Source: Flavobacteriales bacterium (GTDB taxonomy: Bacteria; Bacteroidota; Bacteroidia; Flavobacteriales; CAJXXR01). Taken from it: a stretch of DNA of 64,000 nucleotides. Made by a program: the position numbers and the translations under genes. The notes beneath the pieces are model-generated. The model worked only from the letters and a program-made list of their open reading frames with translations. It searched no databases and was not told the DNA's origin. The stretch lies in the NCBI GenBank assembly GCA_025210805.1, contig JAOAQX010000018.1, forward strand, positions 1 through 64,000, written 5' to 3'. Positions 13,250 to 37,186 of this stretch are shown one piece after another (positions within the stretch are counted from its first letter, which is position 1; each line of letters begins with the position of its first letter).

Positions 13250-15436
13250 CTATTCTACAACCCTCAAAAACTGTCCAATAACCTTTAAATTCATTAAGGC
13301 ATCTTCCTCTAAAACAATATCCTGGTAAGTCTCATCAAATGATCTTGGCTTTAACTTAATAGACTCATGCTTCCATCCATCTATACTAACTTCCTTTTTA
13401 CTATAGTACTCCTTGATGGTATAACAAGATCCAAAATCCTGATCATGCAGGTCTGTTTTTTCTACCAAAACAATTTGCCCATTTCTAGAACCACCAGAAT
13501 ATTTTTCGAAAATACAGTATGAGCCATTGGGGATAATTTTATTCATTGATTCACCGATCACCTGACATATAAACATATTTTCATTAATTCTGTTTTGAGG
13601 TTTAATTTTCATCCAAGAAATATCTCTTGGATCTTGAAAATACCCAAAATCACCCGCAGAAACTTTTAAATCAAAAACGGGTAGTGCATTCTCATACGGT
13701 ACTATTTCTTCGTAATTATCAAGTTTCAAGGGTTCTTTTTTGTTTTCATATTGATGGATGTATTTTGCGAAATACTCTCGGAGTTCGGGATTGCAGACAT
13801 ACACATAAGTACCCTGAATACCACGTAACATAATTGTTTTATAGATATTTAAAATATAAGACTTTAACTCTTCTGGGTTCTTAATTGTTTGCTTCCCATT
13901 TCTATCATGATATTGGGTTTCGTCTATCTTTATTTTCTGCTCTATAGGATCATAAATGATTTCATTACCAAAAATAATGGCGGCAAAATTCAAATCATAT
14001 CCTTGTGTAGTATGAATACATCCTACTTCATTGAAAGAATTGCTGGAATTGATCCAGTCATTTGCCACACTATTCCATTGGAAATTGGTATTTTCTATTT
14101 GAATATCAAATAAACTTTTATCTTTTTTTGAAATCCATTTCCAAGAATAACCTGCAATCATTCTTGATAAACCCTGTTCTTTTTCTCTTTCTTGTATTTG
14201 AAATCTAAAATCCTCAATGGAGTTAAAAAGTACCAAATCATATTTGTTTGAAGAATATTTCTCAGTATTTTCTCCTCTTTCATAAAGCAAATTGTCTAGA
14301 AACTGTACATAATCGTTTCCTCCTTTTGCTCTAAACTGAGATTTTAGTCTAAGTACTGAGGTGGTTTCTTGCTTTTTGATACGTTCAAAATGTGCTTGAG
14401 GTATATCCGATGGCTTTATAGACTGATCACTATCATAGAAAAAAATTGATTTTTCTGATTGCTTAAGTATCCAATCCAATTCATTATGCTTCATTTTATC
14501 AAATCCCAATGCAAGGCTTGCTTTATCAAATGAGCCATAATAGGCTCCCAAATTTACTCTTTGTCTAAGTCTGTGTGCCTCATCAACTAATAGAATATCG
14601 TATTTAGACTTACTGACCTCCGCAGGACCAATTACCATTTTTGTATTTAGTCCAGTGATATTTTTAAATACTTTTTTCAGGGTTTTTCTAAATGAAGCCA
14701 TTGGAACTACCAAAGCCATTTTTAGATTTGGATAGGTATTTTTGAGTTGCTTTACCAAACTAGAAATTTCAGGTTCGTGTTTCCCTAGTTCATCGTAATT
14801 AAAATCCTGAAGATCGTCGGAAAGAAGTTTGAATAAGAAAATTGCCAAAATAGTTTTTCCTGTTCCTGCTCCACCTTGTGCAATAATACTCCCACTGTCT
14901 TTATTTAAAAGGTTTTCTAAAATCCTTTTCAGTCCCTCATATTGCTCATTGCTCAGGGTTTTATAAGGAGAGTATTTAAACAAATCTGAGTTATCTAAAT
15001 GCTCTATTGAATGCTTTGTAATCCCCAGTCTTCTAAGCTGATCCCATACCTGTGTGAATATAACCCGATAAACCTCTTCTTTTTGGTAATAATTATGCCC
15101 CGATAATCCAATATTGCTATTTAGGAGCTTAAAAACCTTATCAGCAGACATATATTTTATCAAGCTAGATTCTATATCCAGCGTAGCTGATTTGTTAAAC
15201 CGATCGCAAGTGATCATTAAAACGGATGTCAGTCTACTTTTTTTATCATTTTTCAAATGAGCTTGCATCCGATTATAAGCATCGGCTGTTTCTCCAATAT
15301 AAGCAATATTTGTTCTTCCATCGCTAATAATATACACGAGTGGCCAAAAGTTGTTGATAAAAAAATTTGCTTCTAAGGATAGATCTAATTGTTCATTAAA
15401 ATCAAACTGATTTACCTGAATTGAATATTCTCCCAT
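13250..15436 (-). CDS. GIY-YIG / DUF2075 helicase / S24 peptidase-like fusion
   Basis: A 728-residue three-part protein. Residues 33-100 are a GIY-YIG-like nuclease domain (LVYIISDG, AYIGETADAYNRMQAH). Residues 160-590 are a DUF2075 (Schlafen group 3-type) superfamily 1 helicase with Walker A GGAGTGKT (188-195), Walker B LLVDEAHR (D285/E286) and RGIQGTYVYV near 550. The C-terminus resembles a LexA/UmuD S24 peptidase: VIGESMNKIIPNG with Ser630, and YTIKEY with Lys675, an intact-looking Ser-Lys pair. It abuts the MazG-like gene without a gap (TAG then ATG). DUF2075/GIY-YIG proteins are found in defence islands; the S24 fusion suggests damage-responsive autoproteolysis (inference). Confidence 0.85.
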   Translation of the reverse strand: MGEYSIQVNQFDFNEQLDLSLEANFFINNFWPLVYIISDGRTNIAYIGETADAYNRMQAHLKNDKKSRLTSVLMITCDRFNKSATLDIESSLIKYMSADKVFKLLNSNIGLSGHNYYQKEEVYRVIFTQVWDQLRRLGITKHSIEHLDNSDLFKYSPYKTLSNEQYEGLKRILENLLNKDSGSIIAQGGAGTGKTILAIFLFKLLSDDLQDFNYDELGKHEPEISSLVKQLKNTYPNLKMALVVPMASFRKTLKKVFKNITGLNTKMVIGPAEVSKSKYDILLVDEAHRLRQRVNLGAYYGSFDKASLALGFDKMKHNELDWILKQSEKSIFFYDSDQSIKPSDIPQAHFERIKKQETTSVLRLKSQFRAKGGNDYVQFLDNLLYERGENTEKYSSNKYDLVLFNSIEDFRFQIQEREKEQGLSRMIAGYSWKWISKKDKSLFDIQIENTNFQWNSVANDWINSSNSFNEVGCIHTTQGYDLNFAAIIFGNEIIYDPIEQKIKIDETQYHDRNGKQTIKNPEELKSYILNIYKTIMLRGIQGTYVYVCNPELREYFAKYIHQYENKKEPLKLDNYEEIVPYENALPVFDLKVSAGDFGYFQDPRDISWMKIKPQNRINENMFICQVIGESMNKIIPNGSYCIFEKYSGGSRNGQIVLVEKTDLHDQDFGSCYTIKEYYSKKEVSIDGWKHESIKLKPRSFDETYQDIVLEEDALMNLKVIGQFLRVVE

Positions 15437-16322: not shown

Positions 16323-17348
16323 TTAATTAGACTGTTTCAATAAATTTGGATTCCAATCAAAATTTGGTGATTTTTCAATTACAATTATAAAAGATTCAAA
16401 ACATTCCCCAAACCATTTTAAGATATCTTCTTCTTCGTTTTCTCCCTGAAAAGAAAGTACACTTTTAGAAAAAGCAAAACTAGTTCCTTTTTCATAATCT
16501 TGAGATTTAATTTTATCTTCAAAAGATCTCAAAATATGTGATTTTATTTTTACAAATTCTTTAACATTCTTATCTAAATAAATTTGACAAACAAATTCCG
16601 AATTACAGTGATTGATACCGAATAATAACTCAGACCAATGTGAATCATTTAAAATACTGCTTGAATATGCAACTTGTCTATTATTAAGATACAATTGATC
16701 CTTAATATCTTTTTCTGTCATCTTATCAAGATCAACATTCGGAAATATTTCTTTGAATTTTTCAACAATTAACTGAATATAGTATTCTTCAAATTTTAAT
16801 GTTCGTAATAAGTTTACTTGAGTGGTAGAAATATCTGTGAAAATAGATGAATCAAAAGTCATATTATGCTGTTCTAAAAAATTTATATAATCATTTACAA
16901 GTTCATATGATTGTCTAAATGGTATCAATACTTGAGCAAAATGAAACCATCTATATTGTCTAAAGTTATTCTCCTCAATAGATTTTGGGTCGTGTTTCTT
17001 TGTACAATAAATTAAATGTTTCTCAGAAAAAGGTTCCTTATTTAGTACTTGATTATAATTATCCAATTGTCCTTCTCCTTCGTTAGAGTGAATCTTTGAT
17101 TCAATAAAACAAATACATCTATTATTTTGTATCACAATATCTGGCTTACAAGCTGTATTTTCGTCTAATTTATACCATACTTGAGTTTCTACAGTGTAAT
17201 TTCCTCCACTTAAACCAATGTATTTTAAAAACTTATCGAATATATCAGGATGATATTTTAAAATAGCTACAAAAGCCTCGGTATTAAAATCTTCCAATGG
17301 TGTATTCTTGCTACTACTTTTGTAGAGGTTGTATAGTTTTTGAAACAT
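16323..17348 (-). CDS. PD-(D/E)XK nuclease superfamily protein
   Basis: A 341-residue protein. The nuclease core is in the first 120 residues: TACKPDIVIQNNRCICFIESKIHSNEGEGQLDNYNQVL gives D70, E83-x-K85 and the QxxxY motif (Q94/Y98) expected for PD-(D/E)XK enzymes of the PDDEXK_4 kind. The remaining 220 residues have no recognised domain and may bind the RT, its RNA or its cDNA. It is the last gene of the RT operon, 6 nt after the membrane protein gene. Its position suggests it is an effector or processing nuclease for the RT system (inference). Confidence 0.8.
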   Translation of the reverse strand: MFQKLYNLYKSSSKNTPLEDFNTEAFVAILKYHPDIFDKFLKYIGLSGGNYTVETQVWYKLDENTACKPDIVIQNNRCICFIESKIHSNEGEGQLDNYNQVLNKEPFSEKHLIYCTKKHDPKSIEENNFRQYRWFHFAQVLIPFRQSYELVNDYINFLEQHNMTFDSSIFTDISTTQVNLLRTLKFEEYYIQLIVEKFKEIFPNVDLDKMTEKDIKDQLYLNNRQVAYSSSILNDSHWSELLFGINHCNSEFVCQIYLDKNVKEFVKIKSHILRSFEDKIKSQDYEKGTSFAFSKSVLSFQGENEEEDILKWFGECFESFIIVIEKSPNFDWNPNLLKQSN

Positions 17349-17354
17349 AAATTA

Positions 17355-17960
17355 TTAACTCATTAAGTTATCATTATTATCCAGATTTGAATTAGTTTTC
17401 AACATCAGAGCATTTTCAGCTTTTGATATTTCATCATTAATAGCTAACATTTCATTTTCATGTTTCGTTATTTGCTGATTAATATCAACATATTTACTGA
17501 ATATCTTTAATTCTAACCAATATTTTATTTTTGAAATAAACTCTTTTACATTTGCTATTGTTCCAAAAATCATAAAAGAAACTAAAGATATTACTAATAA
17601 AGCAAGTTGATTCCAATTTAACAATTCACTAAGCTTTGTAATGTTGAATTCATAATATAAAATCACATTAAATCCTATATAAATAGCAGATAAAGAAAGC
17701 CTAACTCCGAAATATATAATGCTAAATATTCTTCGCAATTTTTTCCAAAGTCCTTCTTTTTTCTCTACTATCACTTTAAGTTTTTGATGCCTGTACTGTA
17801 AGTTTGAAACAGCATGTTTTCGCTTTAAATCTTCCTTATCTTCTAACTCACTATCTTTTGTTGTAAGATCAGCTTGCCCTAAAGTGAATATAAATAATAA
17901 AATAACCAATAATATTATTAACACCCCAATGATTATATTCTTCCAATCACTTCTCTTCAT
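17355..17960 (-). CDS. Small membrane protein in the RT operon, possibly SLATT-like
   Basis: A 201-residue protein with three hydrophobic segments (about 9-28, 81-104 and 117-138). The first may be a signal anchor, leaving a pair of helices preceded by a basic coiled-coil-like stretch (RHQKLKVIVEKKEGLWKKLRRIF) and followed by another helix and a Q/E/K-rich tail. A two-TM core between helices beside a reverse transcriptase recalls SLATT effectors, some of which are coupled to RT genes. I cannot confirm family membership by eye. It lies between the RT gene (24 nt gap) and the nuclease gene (6 nt gap). A membrane-disrupting effector role is inference. Confidence 0.6.
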   Translation of the reverse strand: MKRSDWKNIIIGVLIILLVILLFIFTLGQADLTTKDSELEDKEDLKRKHAVSNLQYRHQKLKVIVEKKEGLWKKLRRIFSIIYFGVRLSLSAIYIGFNVILYYEFNITKLSELLNWNQLALLVISLVSFMIFGTIANVKEFISKIKYWLELKIFSKYVDINQQITKHENEMLAINDEISKAENALMLKTNSNLDNNDNLMS

Positions 17961-17984: not shown

Positions 17985-19556
17985 TTAATTTTCAGTACTA
18001 TTGTTTTGAGATTTCTTTATTATTAAACTTTTAGTTTTATGACACTTAAAAACCTCTTTCTCCCTCACCCTTAATTCATTATGATATTTATTCCAAAATT
18101 TTCGGCTTTGCCTTTTTATACTATCATTCATATTTAGAGACCTAAATTTTTTGTTAGATAAATAGACATAGCTTAAATAATTACCCCAATATGGTATATC
18201 AGTTTTAATATATTCTTTAGGATTATTAAATTTTGGTTTATATGTAAAACGTTTTCTTTTTGCCCCTTTATATGTAAACCTTTTATAAAGACTTGATTTA
18301 AATATATTTTTATCTCTATTATTACTAAATTTCGCATAAAAAGCTCTTCTTCTAATCGACCTTTTCATACTTCTATAATATTTAGCTATTCCAGATTCTT
18401 TAATTAATACTTTTTTACCATTGTATTTAAAACCTAAGTATTCCAAAGAATTTTTTACCGCTTTATTGTTTTTATCAACCAAAAAACAGTCGAAAGTACC
18501 ATTCACTCTTATGAATCGATATAATTTAGTTTTTTTCAAGTGAATTTCTAATTTCACTTCTTCTTTAATTAAATTAAGCATATATTCAAGTATTCTTTCT
18601 TCATGTTTTGAATCACAAATAAGAATAATATCATCACTATATCGTTGATAAAAGCCATTTAAATTATCAATGAATTTAGATAATTTATTATCAAAATCGA
18701 TCATATATATATTGGCAAGAGTAGCGCTAATTGGAGTTCCTTGTGGTATGCCCTTTACTTTTTTGTTTGTGACTATTAGTTGTTTAAACTTGTTATAAAA
18801 TTCTTCTTTGGTACAAAAAGCAACAACATCTTTTTCTTTAAAGTATTTAATATTGGATACTTTCTTTTTTAAATATATAGGATTTATTGGATTGAAAGGT
18901 TTATGAGGTCTTCCTCTTTTCACATAAACATTATTCCCAAGAGCCTCAAACAATTTTTTTTCATGTACGTATCTTAACTTAGTAAGAGACTTAAATATAT
19001 TATAGTGATCATTTGGTAAACTTCTTTCATCAATAATTTTACTCCAATTCTTTTTTAATATCTTATGATCTAGATTGTCAAAAAAACCTGTAATATCTGA
19101 AACTATTACGGATAGATTTTCAGCTGTGTTTTTATGAACAAATTCAAAAGCTTGTTTAGCAAAATCAATATTCGAACAATTAGGTTTTTTACCAACTTCA
19201 ATGGGTATCTTTCTATAAGCGACTACAGACCTATCAAATAATCTACCTTGAAGAAAATTCTCATATTTATCAATTAAGATTTGATTATAATAACTGTATA
19301 TATGGGCATCAATATGTGAGGCAAAATACAAATGCCTTATTTTCAATTTTTTCTTTTCCCTTTCCTTGGGGTTATTTTCTTTTTTCCGAAATTTCCTTTG
19401 TGATACTCTTCTATATAGTAATGGAGAAAAATTATGCTTCTCTATATTGTCTTTTTCATAGATATAATCAGATACCCTATTAAAATGTAGACCTGTTATT
19501 GGGAATCCAATGTGGGGATATCTTTTTATTTTAAACCATTCGGGAAAATCTTTCAT
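17985..19556 (-). CDS. Reverse transcriptase of the defence (UG/DRT-like) type
   Basis: A 523-residue RT. The catalytic core has D154 in SVIVSDITGFFDN, the PQGTPISATLANIYM motif at 271-285 and RYSDDIILIC with D308/D309, so the polymerase should be active. Upstream, RHLYFASHIDAHIYSYY and FDRSVVAYRKIP (74-117) are features of the unknown-group/Abi-related RTs used in phage defence. The retron VTG thumb motif and the maturase domain of group II introns are not seen. The C-terminus is strongly basic (KRKRFTYKPKF), suitable for RNA binding. The ATG lies 14 nt after an inverted-repeat-bounded ncRNA interval. I cannot assign a DRT subtype from sequence alone. Confidence 0.88.
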   Translation of the reverse strand: MKDFPEWFKIKRYPHIGFPITGLHFNRVSDYIYEKDNIEKHNFSPLLYRRVSQRKFRKKENNPKEREKKKLKIRHLYFASHIDAHIYSYYNQILIDKYENFLQGRLFDRSVVAYRKIPIEVGKKPNCSNIDFAKQAFEFVHKNTAENLSVIVSDITGFFDNLDHKILKKNWSKIIDERSLPNDHYNIFKSLTKLRYVHEKKLFEALGNNVYVKRGRPHKPFNPINPIYLKKKVSNIKYFKEKDVVAFCTKEEFYNKFKQLIVTNKKVKGIPQGTPISATLANIYMIDFDNKLSKFIDNLNGFYQRYSDDIILICDSKHEERILEYMLNLIKEEVKLEIHLKKTKLYRFIRVNGTFDCFLVDKNNKAVKNSLEYLGFKYNGKKVLIKESGIAKYYRSMKRSIRRRAFYAKFSNNRDKNIFKSSLYKRFTYKGAKRKRFTYKPKFNNPKEYIKTDIPYWGNYLSYVYLSNKKFRSLNMNDSIKRQSRKFWNKYHNELRVREKEVFKCHKTKSLIIKKSQNNSTEN

Positions 19557-19570
19557 AATTTAGAATATAA

Positions 19571-19996
19571 AAAGAGAGTAAATACATAATATCATAGCAA
19601 GTTCAGATACTACATGCTAATATTAAACAAGAAAAAAATTAACTTATTTAACTCGTAACTCGCAGGTTACACTACTTTCTTTCAGGTATAAATAGTATTA
19701 TATTTGTATTGACCAATTCAATTATTAAACTGATCTTAAAGAAACTCTCAATGATGAAAACTTCTAGCAATAAACACTCTTTAACGGAAACTATTACAGC
19801 AATGATCCTAAGTTGTTTCGCTCGGGTATCATTAATATGCTGCCACATAACATCAAATCTTTTGCACAAAGACTTTGATGGTTGTATTCCCTTCTTCGTA
19901 TAACTTATTTCTTATACTATATATATTTATTTTTATATCATGATATAAAAATAAATAATCTATAAACGTAGGTATCTAACAGTATTTACTCTCTTT
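19571..19996 (-). ncRNA. Candidate RT-associated ncRNA with terminal inverted repeats
   Basis: Perfect 15-bp arms: 19982-19996 (a1, minus-strand AAAGAGAGTAAATAC) and 19571-19585 (a2, its complement). They would pair the ends of a transcript of about 426 nt. A TAnnTTTG box at 20006-20013 predicts transcription starting at about 20000, right at a1, and the RT ATG comes 14 nt after a2. Internal structure includes a 34-bp perfect palindrome (19924-19957), a hairpin with CAGC/GCTG and AATGAT/ATCATT helices (19797-19842), and GTAAC/GTTAC and TAGCA/TGCTA hairpins nearer the 3' end. No convincing protein is encoded. The layout is that of retrons and of DRT loci whose RT copies an upstream RNA. Confidence 0.7.
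19924..19957. repeat. 34-bp perfect palindrome inside the ncRNA
   Basis: Two 17-bp arms meet without a spacer, centred between 19940 and 19941 (…ATATCA|TGATAT…). It is almost pure A/T. In RNA it would form one long hairpin about 45-75 nt from the predicted 5' end. Confidence 0.85.
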
Positions 19997-20005
19997 ATTT
20001 TTTTA

Positions 20006-20037
20006 CAAATTTAATTTTTTGAAATTATTTTTTGAAA
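20006..20037 (-). promoter_or_regulatory. Promoter of the ncRNA-RT operon
   Basis: On the minus strand TAAATTTG (20013-20006) fits TAnnTTTG, with TTTC (20037-20034) 20 nt upstream in place of the usual TTTG. The expected start point (about 20000) coincides with the first base of the a1 repeat, which is the main reason for trusting it. Confidence 0.55.
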
Positions 20038-20051
20038 TTATTTTTTGAAAT
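20013..20051. repeat. Three tandem 13-bp units in the RT promoter
   Basis: Units of TATTTTTTGAAAT (the first starts AA) occupy 20013-20025, 20026-20038 and 20039-20051, overlapping the -33 region. They may be operator half-sites or simply slippage-prone A/T repeats. Confidence 0.7.
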
Positions 20052-20092
20052 AAAACTAAATAAATCTATACTTTCTATTTTATCTGTAGAAA

Positions 20093-21529
20093 TTAAATCA
20101 ATTCAAACCATTCCTCTTCAGATTGATTGTTATATAATTTATCATAATATTTTGCATGATTATAAACATACCCTTCATACCCAATGCATTTCAAAATAAG
20201 TTTACTTATTAAAACAAACAAGCGTGCAGAAACATATCCCATGTAATCATTTATTCTGTCATCGGATATACTCTCACTATTCGTCATTAAAATATTCCCA
20301 TGAAATAAATCATTTCGATGCTCTATGACGTCTATATCCCTCAATGTTAGATTTATTCCTAATAACTCAAAGGGACGAGTTAATTTTTCATTATTAGTTA
20401 AACGCTGTCGGTTGATTGGTCTGTTTACTTCATTAAGTCTTCTTTTTAACTTTAATTTATATTCACTTGACAAATCTGCACAATTATCATCAATCACTTT
20501 ATGTAGTTCTTCTATCACTTTTTCTTTCAAATTACCGTCATTTATTGGATATTCAAGTCCACTTTCAGAGTTTAATAGATGTTTTGATAATAGTTCAATT
20601 ATTCCTGAAAAAGCACTAGGTATAATCAATAAAGACCTAATTGAAGTTGATTCTAATAATATTAGAATAGCAATTGAAAATTCAGGTTCATAATGTATTT
20701 TATGTACTAATTTAGATAAAGTACTTAAAGATATTCTTGTCAATAATGGATGAAATTGTTTAGCAATTTCCCTTTCAATATTAAGATTTGAATAAGGATT
20801 TGTAGTTATGGGGCTATACATTCCCTTTAATTCGGGTCTGATAAAATTCGTATAATACAAACATCCTTCTTCGTCAAAAATAAATTTCTCATTACCTACC
20901 ATTAATTTACTGATAAAACCTATAGCTTGTTGTATTGAAAAGCACAATTCATTAAATTCTTCGAAATCTTGATGATGAAAATTTTCGAATATAAAATACC
21001 CTTTATTCTTATGTTTATATTGTGTTACATCATAGATATTGCCATCAATTTTAATACGAATGCAATCATAAAAATATTCGGTTTCATCAGTTTGATAATG
21101 GACTGTTTCAAATTCTGTATGAAAACTCCTTATTTTAGATAATTCTACTTGAAAAAACATCTTATAAATACTTTTCATTTCGAAAGATTTAGAAAAAAAA
21201 GTATCTAATTCAATATTTGTTTCAAAAGAAGGAGCTTTTGAAACAGAAATACTATTTTTTCTATTAATGTTCCCAAACCTTTTTGACTCATACAAATTTC
21301 CAAAAAGTTCAAAATCAATATTAGATTCATTATCCTCTTGATTCCATATGTACGATTCAATTTTTAGATCAAATTTACCTTCTCCTCTTGACAAAAAGGC
21401 ATAAGAATCAGTTTTCCCAATCCCTTCAAGTATAATTTTCTGAGAATTTAAATTATTTAAATCTTCTATTGTTTTTAATTGATTTTTAAAACATTTATAA
21501 TTCTGTATCTTTTGAGTTGATTTTTTCAT
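20093..21529 (-). CDS. HEPN-domain (ApeA-like) protein
   Basis: A 478-residue protein. The C-terminal third is helical and contains VIEHRNDLFHGNIL, an RX4H motif (R405, H410) diagnostic of HEPN RNases. The N-terminal 250 residues are beta-rich, like the ApeA N-terminal region. HEPN proteins of this type act as infection-activated RNases in abortive defence. It begins 37 nt after the HNH gene, making it the last gene of a four-gene operon. Whether it is part of the ATPase/HNH system or an independent defence gene is open. Confidence 0.75.
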   Translation of the reverse strand: MKKSTQKIQNYKCFKNQLKTIEDLNNLNSQKIILEGIGKTDSYAFLSRGEGKFDLKIESYIWNQEDNESNIDFELFGNLYESKRFGNINRKNSISVSKAPSFETNIELDTFFSKSFEMKSIYKMFFQVELSKIRSFHTEFETVHYQTDETEYFYDCIRIKIDGNIYDVTQYKHKNKGYFIFENFHHQDFEEFNELCFSIQQAIGFISKLMVGNEKFIFDEEGCLYYTNFIRPELKGMYSPITTNPYSNLNIEREIAKQFHPLLTRISLSTLSKLVHKIHYEPEFSIAILILLESTSIRSLLIIPSAFSGIIELLSKHLLNSESGLEYPINDGNLKEKVIEELHKVIDDNCADLSSEYKLKLKRRLNEVNRPINRQRLTNNEKLTRPFELLGINLTLRDIDVIEHRNDLFHGNILMTNSESISDDRINDYMGYVSARLFVLISKLILKCIGYEGYVYNHAKYYDKLYNNQSEEEWFELI

Positions 21530-21566: not shown

Positions 21567-22628
21567 TTAATCATAAGACTTATAGTCATCTTCTTTAATA
21601 ACTCCTAATTCTGTTAATATATCTTTCTTCATTTTACTTAATGGTCTTCTGTGAAAATCACCTTCTTCAGAATACACTCCAAAAGCCATTCTGTAAATCT
21701 CGTTTTTAGAGACATTACTTGAGTTTGTTAGAATACTTTGTAAATTATCTAAATATCGATCTGAATACTTATCTCTCAAAGCGACTAAATCATTTAACTC
21801 ATCTAAATGTGCTTCATAAACCTCTTTTAGCTTAAATGATTCAATAGTCTTAATGATTTTTTTATTTTCATTATCAAGTATATTTGGCTGTATTTCAAAT
21901 GTTCTTTCTCCGATGCTATTCTTATATACATAACTAAATTTGATTTTATCAAAACTTTCCTTATCCAAATAAGGATGAAGGTAATCATCTAGGCTCATAT
22001 CATCATCACCTTTTAAATTACTATTACAAATATGACAACTAGGTATCAGATTATAAAAAGACAGAGCTAATAATGGATATTTACTTTTCGGAAACCAATG
22101 GTCAAACTCTGGTCTAGTAATTTTGTTCTTCTTTTTTAATATGAAATCCTTAATAACAGTTTTAGTGTATAATCTATTACAGTAAACACAAGTCTGGACA
22201 CCTAAGTTTTTTGCCAATTGATAACCATCATAAGAATTTTGCCCCTTTTTCATCACAAATGAATTATAGTTAAAAACTTCATTCAAAATTTGATGAAGTT
22301 TTTTATAGGTTTCCCGATTACTTATTAATTCAGATGATAATTCATCGTTTTTTTTAATTTTTAAATTTTCTTTATATTGGTTATATCCGTTGATGTCGTA
22401 ACCTACAATATCCTCATAAAACTTTTCATTTTGAAGTAATAAATCATTTGGTTGACTGCTAATTAATAAGCTGATTCTATCTGGTGTTAATAATCTCTTT
22501 ACCTCATTCTTAATTTCACAATTTTCACCTAAATCTTTAACTTTATTTTTTACAAAATCTGAAAGATTATCCTTATGAATTTCAAAAGCAATTTTGTTAC
22601 ATCGATTTAATGGATTTATATAAATCAT
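21567..22628 (-). CDS. HNH endonuclease, PtuB-like
   Basis: A 353-residue protein with a zinc-supported HNH core: C147xxC150 (VYCNRLY), FDHWFPKS (D176/H177), N193 and C198xxC201 (SCHICNSNLKG). The N-terminal 120 residues are unassigned. Its ATG overlaps the stop of the ATPase gene by 4 nt (ATGA), as is usual for the ATPase/HNH pair of Septu (PtuA/PtuB) and of the related retron effectors. By analogy it would cut nucleic acid when released by the ATPase. Confidence 0.85.
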   Translation of the reverse strand: MIYINPLNRCNKIAFEIHKDNLSDFVKNKVKDLGENCEIKNEVKRLLTPDRISLLISSQPNDLLLQNEKFYEDIVGYDINGYNQYKENLKIKKNDELSSELISNRETYKKLHQILNEVFNYNSFVMKKGQNSYDGYQLAKNLGVQTCVYCNRLYTKTVIKDFILKKKNKITRPEFDHWFPKSKYPLLALSFYNLIPSCHICNSNLKGDDDMSLDDYLHPYLDKESFDKIKFSYVYKNSIGERTFEIQPNILDNENKKIIKTIESFKLKEVYEAHLDELNDLVALRDKYSDRYLDNLQSILTNSSNVSKNEIYRMAFGVYSEEGDFHRRPLSKMKKDILTELGVIKEDDYKSYD

Positions 22629-24415
22629 AGTTTATCTCTTTTTGCTATTAAATCATCAATTTGTTTTTGAAGAATATCTTTTTCAAAAGTATTATCGTTA
22701 CGCAATCGAGTTATCATTTCAGCAAGTTTATTACGAATAATAGGTTCGTCTATTATTTTTATTATGATTTGCTTTTCTTTTAATTCTTTATCAAAATCTA
22801 TACTTCTTTTAGAGACATCTTTATTATCATTTATCCATTTAATTACTTCATCAATCTTGGACTTTGCAAATTCCCCCATTAAACCATCGTCAATAAAAAA
22901 ACTGTCAGATAACAAATCATGAATATTTGCTCCGAATGATTTCATATAAGCTTTTTCTTCTTCGGAAAGTATTTTAGTTAAACCTATACTATAATCCTTT
23001 TCAAGATAAATTATATTTTGCTTTGGAATATCAGAAAGGGTCAGTGGGTCATGGGTTGTAAATATGATTTGTATTTTTTTACCACTAAATATTTTCGGAA
23101 AATACTTATTAATCAAATAAATAAATTTCTTTTTCCATTGAGGATGAAAACCTAAATCAGCCTCATCAAGAAGAATAACATAATTTTCAAAATTATCAGC
23201 TTCGATTCTTTTTTGTAAATTCAATAAACTAGCAAACATTTCAAACATTGACAACTCTCCAGTACTCAATTTTATAGGCGAATTAAATGTTAATAAAGGA
23301 GAACTATTATAAGTAAATATTCTACCAAAACTTTTTAAGAATTTATGGTATAATTGTATAAACTGATGTGTCTGAGAAAAAGAAATTTCGAACTGAGTTG
23401 TACTACTCTTTATTGATTCTAATTTTGCAATAATATCTATACCAAAATTCAATAAATTAAGAATCTCAAGTTTTGGTAAAATCAAATTATTACCATCATT
23501 AAAATTGGCTTTATTTATAAACTGTTTAAAATATTCAAGTAGATTAATTCCTCCTAAATTTTCCACTTCTTTGTATTTTCCTTCAAACAAATATTTATTC
23601 CCTGATCTTTCCATAATTTGATGAATCTTTTCAATGATTCCTATTATGAAATTTAATTTAAGCCTGTGTTTGTACTTCAATAATCTTAGATTAAAATCAT
23701 CATGATTTTCATAATCTCCTTCATAGTCTTCTGTCAAAAAAGGAAAGTGATTGTACTCTTTTGAATAAATATCATGTGAATTGGAAAAAAAGTCTCTAAA
23801 CTCGTAACTGGTGTTATGATTTGTTACACTATGACTTTCTATATCTATTAGTACCTTATCAAAAATAGGTAAATCAATATCTTCTAGAAAATTTAGCTCA
23901 ATAACATCTATAATTCTTTGAATATTAAAAGATTGATGCATTTCTATAGATTTAGAAAAATCTATACTATTAGTATCTTTTAAATCATCAATTATTTGAA
24001 AATATTTTGATATATAAAATCGATTCTTAAATTCAATACTTCCTCTTGGAACCGAAAAATGTGGTGTGTAAAAAATATAAACTCTTTTTCCTTCTGATAA
24101 ATCATTATTTAACGGATCAGGTTCTGACAAAAACTTACTTTTAAAAATACCCTCTAGAATTGTAGATTTTCCTACACCATTTTCACCAACTATTGCAGTT
24201 ACCGATTTTATATTCCTATTCCAAATATTATTATGTAAAGAAGCTTCTTTTTCATGAATATGATATTGGATGAAACTATTATTTTGGTTTGCAATTTGCT
24301 CATGACAAAAATTCATTTGCTCTTGAATACCAAGATCAATGTAGAATTCATTATGACCTTCTCCAAATAAATATTGATGACTGTTTTCTGGAATACTAAA
24401 TCCTTTTAATAACAT
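22625..24415 (-). CDS. ABC-type ATPase, PtuA-like
   Basis: A 596-residue ATPase of the OLD/RecF-like AAA_15 kind. Walker A is GENGVGKST (77-85), the ABC signature LSTGE is at 383-387, Walker B VILLDEAD ends with D417/E418, and the switch histidine is H455 (FTTHDP). A long insertion (about 95-370) separates the two nucleotide-binding halves. Coupled to the HNH gene by a 4-nt overlap, it fits the PtuA role of a nucleotide-gated sensor that restrains its nuclease. It starts 39 nt after the TPR/PIN gene. Confidence 0.85.
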   Translation of the reverse strand: MLLKGFSIPENSHQYLFGEGHNEFYIDLGIQEQMNFCHEQIANQNNSFIQYHIHEKEASLHNNIWNRNIKSVTAIVGENGVGKSTILEGIFKSKFLSEPDPLNNDLSEGKRVYIFYTPHFSVPRGSIEFKNRFYISKYFQIIDDLKDTNSIDFSKSIEMHQSFNIQRIIDVIELNFLEDIDLPIFDKVLIDIESHSVTNHNTSYEFRDFFSNSHDIYSKEYNHFPFLTEDYEGDYENHDDFNLRLLKYKHRLKLNFIIGIIEKIHQIMERSGNKYLFEGKYKEVENLGGINLLEYFKQFINKANFNDGNNLILPKLEILNLLNFGIDIIAKLESIKSSTTQFEISFSQTHQFIQLYHKFLKSFGRIFTYNSSPLLTFNSPIKLSTGELSMFEMFASLLNLQKRIEADNFENYVILLDEADLGFHPQWKKKFIYLINKYFPKIFSGKKIQIIFTTHDPLTLSDIPKQNIIYLEKDYSIGLTKILSEEEKAYMKSFGANIHDLLSDSFFIDDGLMGEFAKSKIDEVIKWINDNKDVSKRSIDFDKELKEKQIIIKIIDEPIIRNKLAEMITRLRNDNTFEKDILQKQIDDLIAKRDKL

Positions 24416-29787: not shown

Positions 29788-30468
29788 TTAGACTTGATAT
29801 TCTAAATTTTGACTCTGATATCTGTCAAACAATCGCTTTACTGCCATTGATGTAAACTTATTACCTCTACTTGTCAAATAGCTATTATCATTTAATGTAT
29901 TAGCAATTGATTGATAAGACTTACCTTCTTTTTTAAGACTTGAAATAAGAATCGTAGCTCTTTTATTCGACTCATTATTTAATGCTCTTGTTTGACGTAC
30001 TTCAATACTTCTTTTACGAGATTTGTCTGTTAAGTTTTGAGGGCTTCCTAATTTCTTACCCTTTGCCTTAAGTTCCTGTAAAGCAACTTTTGTTCGCTTA
30101 GAAATCCTTTCACGTTCATCTTGAGCTAAAACAGCCATGATTCCAATGGTTACTTTTGAAGCATTGGGCATATCTACACAAACAAAATCTACCTGAGATT
30201 CTTTTAATGTGTATATAAAACTTACATTTCTTGACAATCTATCTAATTTGGCAATGAGTAAAGTCGCTTTACGTTCTTTACAATATTCTATTGCCTTTTT
30301 AAGTTGAGGTCTTTGGTTATTCTTACCACTTTCAATTTCTTCGAATTCGATAATCAATTCATCATCGGATTTTAGAAACTTTTGAACAGCCGTTTTTTGA
30401 GCTTTCAATCCTAAACCTGAATTTCCTTGTTTTTGGGTTGAAACCCTATAATATCCTACATATTTCAT
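29788..30468 (-). CDS. Serine recombinase (resolvase/invertase type)
   Basis: A 226-residue recombinase. The catalytic N-terminal domain begins VGYYRVSTQKQG with nucleophile S10 and contains the conserved AKLDRLSRN and the E-helix KVTIGIMAVLAQDERERISKRTKVAL. A short C-terminal helix-turn-helix region (KRATILISSLKKEGKSYQSIANTLND) is of resolvase size, not the large serine integrase type. It may resolve dimers or invert a segment of the element. It starts 41 nt after the large terminase gene. Confidence 0.9.
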   Translation of the reverse strand: MKYVGYYRVSTQKQGNSGLGLKAQKTAVQKFLKSDDELIIEFEEIESGKNNQRPQLKKAIEYCKERKATLLIAKLDRLSRNVSFIYTLKESQVDFVCVDMPNASKVTIGIMAVLAQDERERISKRTKVALQELKAKGKKLGSPQNLTDKSRKRSIEVRQTRALNNESNKRATILISSLKKEGKSYQSIANTLNDNSYLTSRGNKFTSMAVKRLFDRYQSQNLEYQV

Positions 30469-30509
30469 GTTGCATCATCTGTTAAACGTCGGTTTAATAA
30501 AAGATATGA

Positions 30510-31856
30510 CTACCATCCATTTATTTCTCGGATGTTTATACTTCCACTAATTGCTGGTAAATAACCTTCAGGTAAACCTGATCTTGTCTCTTTTACCCAA
30601 TTGGCATAAACAAGAGCATCTGCAATATCAGGACTTGATCCAAGCATTTTTCGGATAACATCCTTATTGGCAACTTTTACAGTTTTATCACCTGCTATTT
30701 CATAAGTGATTGAACCAAGCTCTAGTTTTAAAGTCTGATCTTGAATATTACCGATATTCCCTTCTTTCATATCTTGCCTTAATTGATAAAACATTTGAGA
30801 ACGAAGATTACTGGGTTGAAAGCTGTCTGGAAAATTAACTTCTTCTGGTTTTGCACCTCCAATCAGTTCTTTTACTCGATAACCTTTAGATGCTAATTCA
30901 TCAATTACACCTGCTCCAATACCAACACCATCAACACCGACATTTTCAGGATTTATACCATAGTAGCTCATTAATTCTATGGCTTTGGTGACAATTTCTG
31001 AAATTGAGGTTTTTTGATAGGTTTCTATCTTACGAACATCTCCATCAAAGATGACAACAAAGACAGTCCGATCATCACCGAAACGTGCAGGGTCAATTCC
31101 AATTGATCTGTAGTCGTTCTGACGTTTTTGAATCTGACAATTGGAAATGTATTCATTTGGAATAAGCTGATTAATAGAATCAATCATTGACCAATCTCCT
31201 TCCAAATACTTTTTTAGCATGATAGGATTATCCTTAAAAGCTTCTTCTAAGTTTTTATAGTAATCACTATCCTTACTGTAATTATCTGAGGTTAGAGATT
31301 GAATATAGACTTCATCTTCATTCGTAGATTGAATAAAGGTTGGAATCAACCAACAGTTCTCAGGGTTACTAGTTAATCTAATTTCGTATCTAGGCTTATT
31401 TCCATCTGGCAGAACCCAACGTAATCGAGTTTTTAGAATTTGATAAACTTCCTTACTGATTTCATTAGCTTCATCAATACCTGCCCATCCAATCTCTAAT
31501 CCTTTAATTTTATTCAATAACGGGTCTTTACTAATATTGGCTTCCATAAAGGTGAGAATAGAACCATTTACAAATGTAATGGTCAAAGAGCTTTGATTAT
31601 AGCTTTTAATAATCTCAGGAGGACAAATGGAAAAGAAGGTAACTAGAATCGTTCTTCTAGCTACCGATAATTCCTTTCTTAGTATTACTAACCTATTACC
31701 GTTAAACATCATAGCATTTTTGATGGCTTCAGCACACAGGAACCATGATTTACCTCCACCCATTGCACCTCCAAAGAGTAAATACTTAGCTCGGCAAGAA
31801 TGAGCACTAGCTTGTTTGGGTTTAGGTTGGTAGTAATTTGCAAAGTCTATTCTCAT
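30510..31856 (-). CDS. terL: Phage terminase large subunit
   Basis: A 448-residue packaging motor. The ATPase has Walker A GGAMGGGKS (29-37) and Walker B WAGIDEANE (D128/E129). The RNase H-like nuclease has D255 (IGIDPARFGDD), D309 (GVDGVGIGAGV) and D410/D413 (SSPDIADALVYA), so both activities look intact. Length is normal for the family. It overlaps the preceding small gene by 4 nt (ATGA). The absence of portal and capsid genes after it is unusual, since these normally follow terL directly. Confidence 0.92.
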   Translation of the reverse strand: MRIDFANYYQPKPKQASAHSCRAKYLLFGGAMGGGKSWFLCAEAIKNAMMFNGNRLVILRKELSVARRTILVTFFSICPPEIIKSYNQSSLTITFVNGSILTFMEANISKDPLLNKIKGLEIGWAGIDEANEISKEVYQILKTRLRWVLPDGNKPRYEIRLTSNPENCWLIPTFIQSTNEDEVYIQSLTSDNYSKDSDYYKNLEEAFKDNPIMLKKYLEGDWSMIDSINQLIPNEYISNCQIQKRQNDYRSIGIDPARFGDDRTVFVVIFDGDVRKIETYQKTSISEIVTKAIELMSYYGINPENVGVDGVGIGAGVIDELASKGYRVKELIGGAKPEEVNFPDSFQPSNLRSQMFYQLRQDMKEGNIGNIQDQTLKLELGSITYEIAGDKTVKVANKDVIRKMLGSSPDIADALVYANWVKETRSGLPEGYLPAISGSINIREINGW

Positions 31857-32215
31857 GAATTGAAATACTTAATTAACTGTTTAGGTTGTTTATATAATTC
31901 AATAAAGATTTTAACAAATAGGTACAAATAATAAACAGCCTCTTCACTTGATTCGTCATTAAGGTCATATGCCTCCACGTCAAAATATTTTAATATTCCA
32001 ATATCATGACTCCTTGTGAAAAATACGTACCTATTAGGATTCCATATCACTTTATATCTATCAGATATTCCTTGATATTTTGTATCAATACTAGACATCC
32101 TTTTAACAGTTTCAACTCTAACTCTCTCATAATTAAAACTGCAATCAATTAACTGCTCTAATGTTTCAATAGACAAACTAATTGATTTATAAATTTCTTG
32201 TTCTTCTTTTTTCAT
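31853..32215 (-). CDS. Unknown 120-aa protein between the terminase genes
   Basis: A soluble 120-residue protein with aromatic, lysine-rich composition and no recognised motif. It is translationally coupled to terL (ATGA overlap) and begins 10 nt after the small-subunit gene, so it is likely involved in packaging or its control. That is inferred from position alone. Confidence 0.6.
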   Translation of the reverse strand: MKKEEQEIYKSISLSIETLEQLIDCSFNYERVRVETVKRMSSIDTKYQGISDRYKVIWNPNRYVFFTRSHDIGILKYFDVEAYDLNDESSEEAVYYLYLFVKIFIELYKQPKQLIKYFNS

Positions 32216-32225
32216 ATTTACTTTT

Positions 32226-32594
32226 TTAATCAGGGATATTAGAGATAAACTCTATACTACCTGAATGTTCTACTTCTATCTTATTCAACCCTTGTAATTG
32301 AGATATTTCTTTATTTACAGACAGGGCTAATCTGTAATCCTTATCTTCCATTGCTTTAGAATACAAGAGTTCATATCTCTTTAAAGCTTTACCGTAATCA
32401 TATCGTACATTCTTTTTATTCTCATTGCTTATTAACTCTCTAGCTTTTGCAATGTATTTGTCCGTTTGCCTTTCTCCTATAGTCCATTTTATAGAACTAT
32501 ATTCTACAATATCTATTCTGCTTTTACCATCTATAAGTAATGAGGCAATTTCTGAAACCCTCAGATTTACTATAGCTTTTGTCGATTTACTCAT
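32226..32594 (-). CDS. terS: Probable terminase small subunit
   Basis: A 122-residue protein with an N-terminal helix-turn-helix-like segment (VSEIASLLIDGKSRIDIVEYSSIKW, then ERQTDKYIAKARELI), a central helical oligomerisation-type region (RLALSVNKEISQLQGLNK) and a beta-strand tail (IEVEHSGSIEFI). This pattern and its position just before terL are typical of DNA-recognising small terminase subunits. It would choose the DNA to be packaged. Confidence 0.72.
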   Translation of the reverse strand: MSKSTKAIVNLRVSEIASLLIDGKSRIDIVEYSSIKWTIGERQTDKYIAKARELISNENKKNVRYDYGKALKRYELLYSKAMEDKDYRLALSVNKEISQLQGLNKIEVEHSGSIEFISNIPD

Positions 32595-32669
32595 AACTTT
32601 TAGTATATAATTCTGTTTTTAATGGGGCAAGTACTTTTACTAATTCTATCTATGGTTAATTACATGGTG

Positions 32670-33599
32670 TTATAAATCTTCTTTAGTGAATTTTTTACCA
32701 CTTATATTAAAGGGTAAATTGTTCTCCTCATTTTTAAAAGATAGATCATTACATTTATCTTTAACAAGAGTAATTAAAGATGAATGTAGAACCGCGTTTC
32801 GACTTTCAACAATTCGCATATATTTTTGCTTTTGCTTAAAAAATGATTTTGGATTTAGCCCCGCCCAATAATTTGGATTCGAAACTTGACTTAGGAATAA
32901 CTCTTCATTTATTGTTTTTGCTTTAATTTTTTCATCAAAAACAATCATTCGTTCCATAACATTGACCAAATCAATTTTCATTTTGGTGATTACTAAATCT
33001 TCAGAATAAAGATCTTTAATTCGTAAATCCTTAGTCCCTATTTTTTGCATTTTAGAGACTTGGATTTCAAATCTTATTACATTTTCTTTTAAATTGTATT
33101 GTAATGTCTTTGAATACAACTTAATTCTATATTGACTAAAAACGCACTCAAGTCCGATACATTGAGTAGTATTGCTCCTTAATGGTTGAAATGGTCTACC
33201 CTTATAGCTAATGAAAATTTTACGAAGATTATCTAAGTTCGGATTAAAAGGTACAGTCATATTGACTCCATACTCTATAAAATGAATGGTTGAATTTTCG
33301 ATATCTAAACCAAATTCTTTTTCAAAACCCTGAACAGCAGTTTTGAAATCATAAATTGAGAAATCTTTCCAATTCTCACCATTCTGTAAATACTTATGAA
33401 AAGTTCCTTTTGTATAAAATGTTAGTGGATGTATATCAATTTTGAAACTCTTATAATCTTTGTGCATTTTATAAGGGTAATCAATAATTTCTCCAGTATA
33501 AGTTTTAATTGAACTTCTATAATTTAAAGCATGATTATTAATTAGAAAATCAGCTTTACCTTCAGTTCTAAATTTTATAAAATCTATCATTTGCATCAA
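32670..33599 (-). CDS. Replication-initiator-like protein
   Basis: A 309-residue protein resembling the Rep proteins (filamentous-phage gpII/plasmid type) found on Bacteroidota mobile elements: DFSIYDFKTAVQGFEKEFG, STIHFIEYGVNM, IKLYSKTLQYNLKENVIRFEIQVSKMQ and DLRIKDLYSEDLV. I do not see a clear HUH motif or the catalytic tyrosine context, so nicking activity is uncertain. Several possible starts exist (33599, 33596, 33590), and the frame overlaps the preceding small ORF by 32 nt. Confidence 0.55.
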   Translation of the reverse strand: MMQMIDFIKFRTEGKADFLINNHALNYRSSIKTYTGEIIDYPYKMHKDYKSFKIDIHPLTFYTKGTFHKYLQNGENWKDFSIYDFKTAVQGFEKEFGLDIENSTIHFIEYGVNMTVPFNPNLDNLRKIFISYKGRPFQPLRSNTTQCIGLECVFSQYRIKLYSKTLQYNLKENVIRFEIQVSKMQKIGTKDLRIKDLYSEDLVITKMKIDLVNVMERMIVFDEKIKAKTINEELFLSQVSNPNYWAGLNPKSFFKQKQKYMRIVESRNAVLHSSLITLVKDKCNDLSFKNEENNLPFNISGKKFTKEDL

Positions 33600-33822
33600 T
33601 TATATAATTATTCAATGACAGATTTGAAATCTGAGGGTATTTCTTTAAGCCCAAAGATTGACACCACCAAACACAATATATTTTTAAAATTTTCACTCTA
33701 AAAAACAGCGAACCTAAATTATAAGTTAAACTATAATTCATTTCTGAAATCACTTGAGAAATAACTCCTATAATCTGATCATTTATTAGAATTATTTCAA
33801 CCTTGTTTTTCTGAATTATCAT
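33568..33822 (-). CDS. Small hypothetical protein, 84 aa
   Basis: An 84-residue frame that starts 12 nt after the HTH gene and overlaps the Rep-like gene by 32 nt. The first half (KVEIILINDQIIGVISQVISEMNYSL) has coding-like alternating hydrophobic character, while the second half is less convincing. No family is recognised. It is accepted because it fills an otherwise empty gap in a tightly packed operon. Confidence 0.4.
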   Translation of the reverse strand: MIIQKNKVEIILINDQIIGVISQVISEMNYSLTYNLGSLFFRVKILKIYCVWWCQSLGLKKYPQISNLSLNNYIIDANDRFYKI

Positions 33823-33834
33823 AATTTCAAGGAT

Positions 33835-34170
33835 TTAATTATCTCTCAAATAATTTTCCACTTGTTTATCCAAATCAGAGTTGGACATTTTACGCCCCTC
33901 CTTTAGATACTCTATAAGTTCAGCTTTAGAAAAGTAGAGGCTTTTACCCCTTTTCATTACAGGTAGTTCACCTCTACTCACCTTACTATAAATAGTCGGT
34001 ACTTTAAGATTAAGAAACTTTGCCGTTTCTTTAATTGTCAGAAATAGTTCAGGCTCTGGAATATTATTTTGCCCCTCAATTTCAACTAAAAGACGTTTAA
34101 TTTCAAAAACCTCTTTCATTAATATTGCCACTGCTTTTGGCAACTTATCGAATGATAAATCTTCTGTCAT
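33835..34170 (-). CDS. Excisionase-like helix-turn-helix protein
   Basis: A 111-residue protein with an HTH_17 (MerR/excisionase) domain at about 43-90: LTIKETAKFLNLKVPTIYSKVSRGELPVMKRGKSLYFSKAELIEYLKEG. The N-terminal 40 residues are a helical extension common in Bacteroidota element proteins. It is likely a directionality factor for the nearby integrase or a regulator of the replication genes. Confidence 0.85.
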   Translation of the reverse strand: MTEDLSFDKLPKAVAILMKEVFEIKRLLVEIEGQNNIPEPELFLTIKETAKFLNLKVPTIYSKVSRGELPVMKRGKSLYFSKAELIEYLKEGRKMSNSDLDKQVENYLRDN

Positions 34171-34263
34171 ATTTTCAGTATTTTATTTGTAATACTTTGC
34201 GAAATACTGAAAATAGAATACGGATAATTTACGGTTAAAATCCGTATTTACGGATATCGTTAT

Positions 34264-35217
34264 TTAATAATCAATATGCATTAATTTCTTTACCTCATCA
34301 TCATTTCTTACTGCCATAAAGTTTTTTTCTTTGTCTTCAGAATAAGGAGCAAAGGTTTTTTTATAAAATTCAAAAAGAGAATTAGGATATGTTCTGTTAT
34401 TATGGAGTACCTTAAACAAATATCTAAATGCTAATTGAACATAAGTTTTGTTTGTATTTACAACTTTTATAGGCTCTGTAATCTTTGGGACAATACAATC
34501 ATTCTCATAATAGCTAATTGTCCAATTAATCAATTTCTCGAAATCATTATCATTCAATATTTGTTTGTGTTTTCGAGGACATTTCATGTTAAAGAATCCA
34601 AAATGCTTTTGTATTTTCAAAGAAAGCTCACCTTCATTTTGTTCCTTTATTATTTTGTTATCATCATGTGATTTTAATTTACTTTTTAATAAATTCTTTA
34701 CTTCATAAAATGAATCCATACAGAAAGGGGAGATCTTATTTAGCATTTCATGAAATTCTATAATTTCAACTGGATCATCCATGACTCTTACTACTTTAAA
34801 AGGGATTTTCCATTTTTTAAAATTGTAATATTCTATCAATTGAGGTTTTACTATTTCTTTGAATTCTATTTCTTCAAAAACCTCCATTTCTTTTAAAGCA
34901 ATGTTAACTTTTGATGTTTCGAAATTATTTGTTTTATTTTCTATATAGTTTATAATATCAATAAGTGCATAATCAACACATCTTTCTATCTCAATTTTAT
35001 TAACTACATCTATTAGATCTTTAAGTCCATCACGGAATTCTTTATCACTAAATAATTCACTATTTTTGAATAAAAATATACTTCCTTGTAAAGTGTTATA
35101 TTTATTATTAGTCCCCATTTCTCTGAATTTTAATTCAAATAATGCAAAGTAATTATAACCACTAATGTTTTTTATATATTCATCAAAAGATAAATCATCT
35201 ATTTTACTCATCTTCAA
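34264..35217 (-). CDS. Hypothetical protein following the integrase
   Basis: A 317-residue soluble protein whose start overlaps the integrase 3' end by 14 nt. The C-terminal stretch (KTYVQLAFRYLFKVLHNNRTYPNSLFEFYKKTFAPYSED) resembles the tail of uncharacterised proteins commonly found behind tyrosine recombinases in Bacteroidota islands. No catalytic motif is visible. The function may relate to integration or excision (inference from position). Confidence 0.65.
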   Translation of the reverse strand: MKMSKIDDLSFDEYIKNISGYNYFALFELKFREMGTNNKYNTLQGSIFLFKNSELFSDKEFRDGLKDLIDVVNKIEIERCVDYALIDIINYIENKTNNFETSKVNIALKEMEVFEEIEFKEIVKPQLIEYYNFKKWKIPFKVVRVMDDPVEIIEFHEMLNKISPFCMDSFYEVKNLLKSKLKSHDDNKIIKEQNEGELSLKIQKHFGFFNMKCPRKHKQILNDNDFEKLINWTISYYENDCIVPKITEPIKVVNTNKTYVQLAFRYLFKVLHNNRTYPNSLFEFYKKTFAPYSEDKEKNFMAVRNDDEVKKLMHIDY

Positions 35218-36352: not shown

Positions 36353-36369
36353 GATAATAGTAAAATTAG

Positions 36370-36930: not shown

Positions 36931-37047
36931 TTATACCATTTTTAAGTAACGATTAAAATAATTAGAATATAATAAGGTTTATTAAGTAACTTTATTTCTC
37001 CCTATATCCAATTATTTTCCAATTTTTGTATCGCAAAAACACAAAAG

Positions 37048-37065
37048 GTACAGCAAAGGTACAAA
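37048..37065. other. Candidate attR overlapping a promoter
   Basis: GTACA, GCAAAG, GTACAAA: the right-hand partner of 16267-16284. The minus-strand -7 box TACCTTTG (37061-37054) spans the variable six bases. With the attL centre the same place would read TACCGTAT, which lacks the TTTG, so the promoter would depend on which centre is present. Confidence 0.4.
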
Positions 37066-37120
37066 TTAGAGACAAATAAAACATATATAATCACAAAACA
37101 ATCATATATAACAAAATTAA

Positions 37121-37154: not shown

Positions 37155-37186
37155 ATTCTATTTTGATAATCCTTTATTTTACATGG

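What the first reader, a model, noticed from the sequence alone, without database searches (positions are those of the whole stretch)
19554..20037. Retron-like ncRNA layout in front of a non-retron defence reverse transcriptase
Seen: a perfect 15-bp inverted repeat (19982-19996 and 19571-19585) encloses about 396 noncoding nt. A TAAATTTG box ends 10 nt upstream of the first arm, so transcription should begin at that arm. The RT ATG follows the second arm by 14 nt. Known: retrons use a1/a2 repeats around msr-msd, and DRT2/DRT9-type systems copy an upstream ncRNA. Inference: this RT, which lacks the retron VTG motif, uses the enclosed RNA as template or primer, making a possibly undescribed class. 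The enclosed RNA is longer than usual retron ncRNAs.
Basis: partly seen in the sequence, partly recalled or inferred. Interest (0 to 1): 0.9.

Follow-up and report, generated by a model that had tools for sequence, protein, structure and literature searches.

The report
Divergent Bacteroidota DRT2 hidden-gene RNA
The structured RNA in front of this reverse transcriptase looks like the template of a DRT2-type anti-phage system: copied round and round into DNA it would create a hidden, endless gene whose promoter exists only where two copies meet, and that promoter is written in the Bacteroidota dialect.

Summary
The RT is a divergent DRT2: PADLOC Drt2 443 bits, best solved structure the DRT2 RT 9c0i, nested in a Bacteroidota clade below NCBIfam's Drt2 cut-off. 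Homologous loci carry the terminal inverted repeat with compensatory changes. I located what published work called hard to annotate in divergent DRT2 clades: a predicted template (19690-19887, 198 nt) bounded by a 4-nt jump motif (AUAC). Its concatemer is stop-free on the antisense strand (66-codon Neo repeat), and its junction alone creates TTTG-N19-TATATTTG, a Bacteroidota -33/-7 promoter. Across 46 relatives, 43 template lengths divide by three and all 43 are stop-free antisense (2.2 expected); 22 of 25 in the window's clade have the junction promoter (0.13 expected). Jump motifs change in concert at both ends. Two Psychrobacter loci nested in this clade form TTGACA/T-N17-TATAAT instead, so promoter type follows the host. 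The same procedure recovers the published ACA/TTGACA/TATAAT anatomy in proteobacterial Drt2 loci. Best explanation: rolling-circle reverse transcription making a toxic Neo gene, in a Bacteroidota DRT2 variant with its own jump motif, promoter and closing helix. Nothing was tested experimentally. Novelty: new variant of a known kind.

The parts
17985..19556 (-). DRT2-type reverse transcriptase, 523 aa, YSDD active site
   Evidence: PADLOC Drt2 PDLC03757 442.8 bits; NCBIfam Drt2 348.6 bits against a cut-off of 390; PDB 9c0i E 6e-59 by sequence and E 1.2e-36, TMt 0.86 by fold; tree
20006..20013 (-). TAAATTTG, putative Bacteroidota -7 box for the ncRNA-RT transcript
   Evidence: sequence; consensus TAnnTTTG
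19571..20001 (-). predicted ncRNA, about 431 nt; ends inferred from the -7 box and the closing helix
   Evidence: fold z = -5.31; conserved layout upstream of homologs
19982..19996 (-). 5' arm of closing helix P1
   Evidence: covariation in relatives
19571..19585 (-). 3' arm of closing helix P1
   Evidence: covariation in relatives
19966..19976 (-). 5' arm of inner long-range helix P2, GAUACCUACGU
   Evidence: folds, relatives
19606..19615 (-). 3' arm of helix P2, AUGUAGUAUC
   Evidence: folds, relatives
19690..19887 (-). predicted reverse-transcription template, 198 nt = 66 codons; its concatemer is stop-free on the + strand
19884..19887 (-). jump motif 1 (AUAC), 5' end of the template, counterpart of ACA-1
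19686..19689 (-). jump motif 2 (AUAC of AUACCUGAAA), just 3' of the template, counterpart of ACA-2
19874..19877 (+). TTTG: -33 half of the split neo promoter, supplied by the end of one repeat
19699..19706 (+). TATATTTG: -7 half of the split neo promoter, supplied by the start of the next repeat; 19-nt spacer only across the junction
19751..19756 (+). ATGATG, candidate neo start codons in the stop-free frame, about 40 nt after the predicted neo transcription start
   Evidence: in-frame Met in many relatives' Neo repeats
19671..19675 (-). GUAGU, 5' half of a tentative pseudoknot crossing P2
   Evidence: matched G..G[C/U] / GC..C pairs in 23 of 25 relatives; 19 of 21 distinct against a permuted maximum of 17; the window pairs only through G-U ends; motif chosen after inspection
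19594..19598 (-). GCUAU, 3' half of the tentative pseudoknot
19924..19957 (-). perfect 17-nt palindromic AT hairpin within about 30 nt that the closest relatives lack

Best explanation
This is a two-part DRT2-type abortive-infection system of a divergent Bacteroidota subclade: RT plus upstream ncRNA. Shown by comparison: the RT's kinship to DRT2; the closing helix; the template boundaries as a co-varying microhomology; template length divisible by three and stop-free on the antisense strand; and promoter halves that come together only across the repeat junction. Inferred from KpnDRT2: the RT copies 19887-19690, the cDNA 3' end (ending in GTAT) lets go of jump motif 1 and re-anneals to jump motif 2, and repeated rounds yield tandem 198-nt repeats. 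After second-strand synthesis, triggered by phage infection, host RNA polymerase transcribes from TTTG-N19-TATATTTG, and translation from the in-frame ATG gives an endless, hydrophobic 66-aa-repeat Neo protein that arrests the cell. The closing helix most likely holds the 5' and 3' ends together and delimits the ncRNA; that role is inferred.
For: RT. Closing and inner helices conserved with compensatory changes. Template: best-microhomology boundary pairs give 10/10 (g1), 8/9 (g2), 6/6 (g3) and 19/21 (g4) sequences divisible by three and antisense-endless; overall 43/46 divisible by three while the template-to-RT distance is spread over residues 18/16/12, and 43/43 endless against 2.2 expected. 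Jump motif switches at both ends together: AUACC in g1, UUUC in L104, AUUC in L037, AUAC in L031, UAUUU in g3. Junction promoter TTG-N19-21-TAnnTTT[GA]: 8/10, 8/9, 6/6 against 0.06, 0.05, 0.02 expected; absent in linear order near the window locus. Blind detector: 32 of 94 loci against 0.75 expected, one 198-nt solution for the window, and loci not used for setting boundaries found (L112, L105). Positive control: seven proteobacterial Drt2 loci yield ACA boundaries in most, 111-120-nt units and TTGACA/TATAAT-type junctions, the published anatomy. Natural experiment: Psychrobacter L030/L045 form TTGACA/T-N17-TATAAT with the -10 across the junction.
Against: No transcript, cDNA or defence data. 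Substitutions by neo codon position are only mildly biased (61/75/87), so amino-acid-level selection on Neo is not shown. The sense strand is also endless in 13 of 43 units, the window among them. In the sister clade g4 the junction promoter is found in only 5 of 21 and boundaries are less certain. Three templates are not divisible by three (L038, L060, L074). Boundaries were first chosen per group by maximising these same features, so the pooled counts are partly circular; the held-out loci, the blind detector and the proteobacterial control lessen this. The open-frame conservation test alone cannot tell neo from an ordinary coding stretch (control region).
Confidence: 0.88

Rival explanations
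1. A retron-like element: the a1/a2 helix encloses msr-msd, and the RT makes branched msDNA.
For: Layout with terminal inverted repeats around about 400 nt next to an RT.
Against: No VTG string in the RT; retron RTs align weakly in one core stretch and rank far below DRT2 by fold; the conserved antisense frame and junction promoter have no role in retrons.
Confidence: 0.03
2. A DRT2 relative that uses the ncRNA as template but makes a different product (for example non-coding repetitive DNA as effector, as in DRT9 or DRT10); the antisense frame is incidental.
For: Weak codon-position bias; the authors of the DRT2 work left room for other mechanisms in divergent clades.
Against: Length divisible by three in 43/46, 43/43 endless, host-type promoter across the junction in 22/25, promoter switched to sigma-70 type in Psychrobacter.
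Confidence: 0.07
3. The inverted repeat is a terminator, attenuator or mobile-element end unrelated to the RT.
For: AT-rich region; a perfect AT hairpin lies inside.
Against: The same closing helix with different sequences stands at the same place before RT homologs whose neighbouring genes differ.
Confidence: 0.02

Closest known systems
Klebsiella pneumoniae DRT2 (KpnDRT2), PMC11100668 and PMC12039810; PDB 9c0i
   Same: Homologous RT; upstream ncRNA; template bounded by a short direct repeat; length divisible by three; endless antisense frame; promoter reconstituted across the repeat junction
   Different: Jump motif AUAC/AUACC rather than ACA; template 198 rather than 120 nt; promoter TTTG-N19-TATATTTG rather than TTGACA-N17-TATAAT; long-range closing helix P1; RT 523 rather than 425 aa; below the NCBIfam Drt2 cut-off
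DRT9
   Same: Defence RT with adjacent ncRNA
   Different: PADLOC Drt9 51.5 bits against 442.8 for Drt2; fold E 7.6e-12 against 1.2e-36
Retrons
   Same: Terminal inverted repeat enclosing the RNA beside an RT
   Different: No VTG string; distant RT; no evidence of msr/msd; DRT2 anatomy instead

Membership tests
DRT2, broad sense (PADLOC Drt2 / UG2) | Full-length RT homology to Drt2 | tested here: met
   PDLC03757 E 4.6e-133, residues 6-510; 9c0i best fold match
DRT2, broad sense (PADLOC Drt2 / UG2) | Structured ncRNA directly upstream of the RT | tested here: met
DRT2, broad sense (PADLOC Drt2 / UG2) | Template flanked by direct microhomology allowing template jumping | tested here: met
   AUAC at both ends, co-varying in relatives
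DRT2, broad sense (PADLOC Drt2 / UG2) | Repeat unit divisible by three and stop-free antisense | tested here: met
   198 nt, one stop-free frame
DRT2, broad sense (PADLOC Drt2 / UG2) | Promoter formed only across the repeat junction | tested here: met
   TTTG-N19-TATATTTG; none in linear order at 19500-20100
DRT2, broad sense (PADLOC Drt2 / UG2) | Concatemeric cDNA, Neo synthesis and phage defence | not testable with these tools
   needs wet-lab data
DRT2, strict Klebsiella type (NCBIfam NF041746) | Score at or above the curated cut-off of 390 bits | tested here: not met
   348.6 bits; other Bacteroidota 347-379, proteobacterial loci 558-577
DRT2, strict Klebsiella type (NCBIfam NF041746) | ACA-1/ACA-2 jump motifs | tested here: not met
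   boundary motif is AUAC
Retron | RT VTG motif | tested here: not met
   string absent
Retron | a1/a2-like repeat around the ncRNA | tested here: met
   resemblance of layout only
Retron | msr/msd with branching guanosine and msDNA | not tested
   needs msDNA sequencing
DRT9 | RT best matches Drt9 | tested here: not met
   51.5 against 442.8 bits for Drt2

The most novel reading that the evidence does not exclude
Bacteroidota carry an unrecognised DRT2 subtype with its own ncRNA architecture (long-range closing helix, interchangeable jump motifs, templates of about 111-198 nt). Its hidden neo gene is driven by a split promoter matched to the host's primary sigma factor, and that promoter was rewritten from Bacteroidota to sigma-70 grammar when the system moved into Psychrobacter.
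Probability: 0.72. Interest if true: 0.68.

Novelty: new variant of a known kind. Interest (0 to 1): 0.62.

Why it matters
The DRT2 discovery preprint reports that Neo was hard to annotate in divergent clades and suggests other mechanisms there; the companion paper predicts that other DRT2 systems may rebuild phage-specific promoters. Here the same neo logic is found in a divergent clade with a different jump motif and a host-type promoter, which argues that the mechanism is older and broader than the Klebsiella group and that the promoter follows the host. It gives exact, falsifiable junction sequences and an annotation rule for loci that current models miss.

Tried and rejected
AATACAA direct repeat (19888/19710): 178 nt, not divisible by three, not endless; rejected. 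ACA-only boundaries: one 69-nt solution only. Rfam: no match in the window. Conserved partner gene: neighbours of the window RT (17355-17960, 16323-17348, 20093-21529) are absent next to homologs. Codon-position test: weak. A free search for the pseudoknot was hardly above controls; only the specific G..GC/GC..C pattern was, so it stays tentative. A closing helix in proteobacterial loci: not above chance in five of seven, 8 bp in two, so its absence there is not firmly shown. Control region -950..-500 was partly protein-coding and did not discriminate. A g4-specific promoter was not worked out. Genome searches centred on Psychrobacter were not possible. Literature searches for Neo in Bacteroidota found nothing, but the library is partial.

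Full report
Observation. The strand folds far better than shuffles (z -4.96 and -5.31).

What the RT is. PADLOC's Drt2 profile matches residues 6-510 with 442.8 bits, against 51.5 for Drt9 and 88 for the next UG family. NCBIfam's Drt2 model gives 348.6 bits, below its cut-off of 390; other Bacteroidota members score 347-379 and proteobacterial ones 558-577. By sequence the best solved structures are the DRT2 RTs (9c0i, E 6e-59). An AlphaFold2 model from 23 homologs (pLDDT 88.9) matches 9c0i at E 1.2e-36, TM 0.86 on the target, with DRT9 next at 7.6e-12. In a tree of 91 RTs the window sits in an 11-row Bacteroidota group (support 99) within a 31-row clade (97) separate from the proteobacterial group. 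So it is a divergent DRT2, not a new RT class.

The upstream RNA is conserved. Of about 100 homologous loci, those of Bacteroidota mostly have a terminal stem of 8-15 bp that begins roughly 300-440 nt upstream of the RT and ends within about 25 nt of it, with different sequences in different loci. In the closest group the arms GGGCCAGA, GGGGACAG, GGGTCAGA, GGGGCAGA and GGGTCGAG each meet their own complement, with changes at five of eight pairs; RNAalifold finds the same closing helix P1 and the inner helix P2 independently. In the sister clade the outer pairs exceed nearly all permutations of the arms (3 of 2000 reach the observed value). P2 (variable stem ending in ACGU/AUGU) is fully paired in the ten distinct arm pairs that could be aligned; these were selected as good pairings, so this is descriptive.

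The template and the hidden gene. In KpnDRT2 the RT copies a central template, jumps between two ACA motifs and makes concatemers whose antisense strand is an endless frame, with a promoter formed at the junction (PMC11100668, PMC12039810). I searched group alignments for pairs of positions for which the intervening unit is divisible by three and endless antisense, and ranked them by shared sequence at the two ends. In the window's group the top pair is endless in 10 of 10 and has a mean microhomology of 4.7 nt, against 3.1 for the next distinct pair. In the window this is 19887-19690: 198 nt, AUAC at both ends. Over 46 loci, 43 lengths divide by three although 18 different lengths occur, while the distance from template to RT does not favour any residue; all 43 are endless antisense (2.2 expected from dinucleotide shuffles). 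The end motif changes at both ends together (AUACC, UUUC, AUUC, AUUU, UAUUU), as expected if the cDNA end must re-anneal.

The promoter. Bacteroidota use TTTG/TAnnTTTG (-33/-7) instead of TTGACA/TATAAT (PMC6847099, PMC9723704). On the + strand the window's unit begins AAATAGTATTATATTTG and ends CTTTGATGGTTGTAT; only head-to-tail joining gives TTTG-N19-TATATTTG, and no such promoter exists in linear order at 19500-20100. The same split promoter, spacer 19-21, is present in 8/10, 8/9 and 6/6 members of the three groups of the clade, with 0.06, 0.05 and 0.02 expected. Two in-frame ATGs follow about 40 nt after the predicted start, and many relatives have an in-frame Met there. The sister clade shows the promoter in 5 of 21 only; its boundaries are less certain.

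Controls. The same procedure on seven proteobacterial Drt2 loci returned ACA boundaries in most, units of 111-120 nt and TTGACA/TATAAT-type junctions, as published. A blind detector run on 94 distinct upstream regions found the Bacteroidota signature in 32 (0.75 expected), gave the window one solution, and found loci not used for setting boundaries (L112, L105); L106 was hit at an atypical position. The sigma-70 version of the detector is less specific (30 found, 4.4 expected).

A natural experiment. Two Psychrobacter loci (L030, L045; RTs 57% identical) nest inside the Bacteroidota clade. Their predicted junctions make TTGACA-N17-TATAAT and TTGACT-N17-TATAAT, with the -10 hexamer spanning the junction, and no TAnnTTTR box. 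Within the 31-row clade the promoter type follows the host (25 of 29 Bacteroidota with the Bacteroidota type, counting L106; 2 of 2 Psychrobacter with sigma-70; Fisher p 0.008 ignoring relatedness). One Flavobacteriaceae metagenome bin, L028, scores as sigma-70.

Weak points. Codon-position bias is slight (61/75/87), in line with the published remark that most Neo conservation is at the nucleotide level. The sense strand is open in 13 of 43 units. Boundary selection and some tests share the same criteria. A pseudoknot crossing P2 is plausible but was defined after inspection. The function of P1 is inferred. No expression data exist.

Context. The neighbours of the window RT are not conserved beside homologs, so RT plus ncRNA is the unit. 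The locus lies in a run of defence-like genes: a Septu-like ATPase/HNH pair (PDC-M62), a schlafen-type helicase with GIY-YIG and S24 domains, and a PLD-like protein. A tyrosine integrase, a terminase and a resolvase lie between it and mnmE, consistent with an integrated element.

Noticed in passing
L030 and L045 (Psychrobacter), upstream of the RT: Horizontally placed DRT2 loci inside a Bacteroidota clade whose predicted repeat junction forms a consensus or near-consensus sigma-70 promoter with the -10 hexamer itself spanning the junction.
   Followed up: yes
window 19924-19957: Perfect 17-nt AT palindrome within about 30 nt of the 5' domain of the ncRNA that its closest relatives lack.
   Followed up: partly
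window 20014-20050: Three near-perfect copies of a 13-nt unit (TTTCAAAAAATAA) directly upstream of the ncRNA -7 box.
   Followed up: no
window 17355-17960: 201-aa predicted membrane protein 24 nt downstream of the RT; no defence or family match and not found next to homologous RTs.
   Followed up: partly
window 21567-24415: ATPase/HNH gene pair matching PADLOC candidate system PDC-M62A/B, Septu-like.
   Followed up: partly
window 13250-15436: 728-aa protein joining GIY-YIG, a schlafen group 3 helicase and an S24 peptidase-like domain: an unusual fusion in a defence neighbourhood.
   Followed up: partly
window 29788-38578: Resolvase, terminase large subunit and tyrosine integrase next to mnmE: the defence genes probably lie in an integrated element.
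   Followed up: partly
clade g4 (L047-L074, L003), upstream of the RT: Sister Bacteroidota DRT2 clade has conserved antisense frames (183-192 nt) but the junction promoter in only 5 of 21; it may use another promoter or other boundaries.
   Followed up: partly
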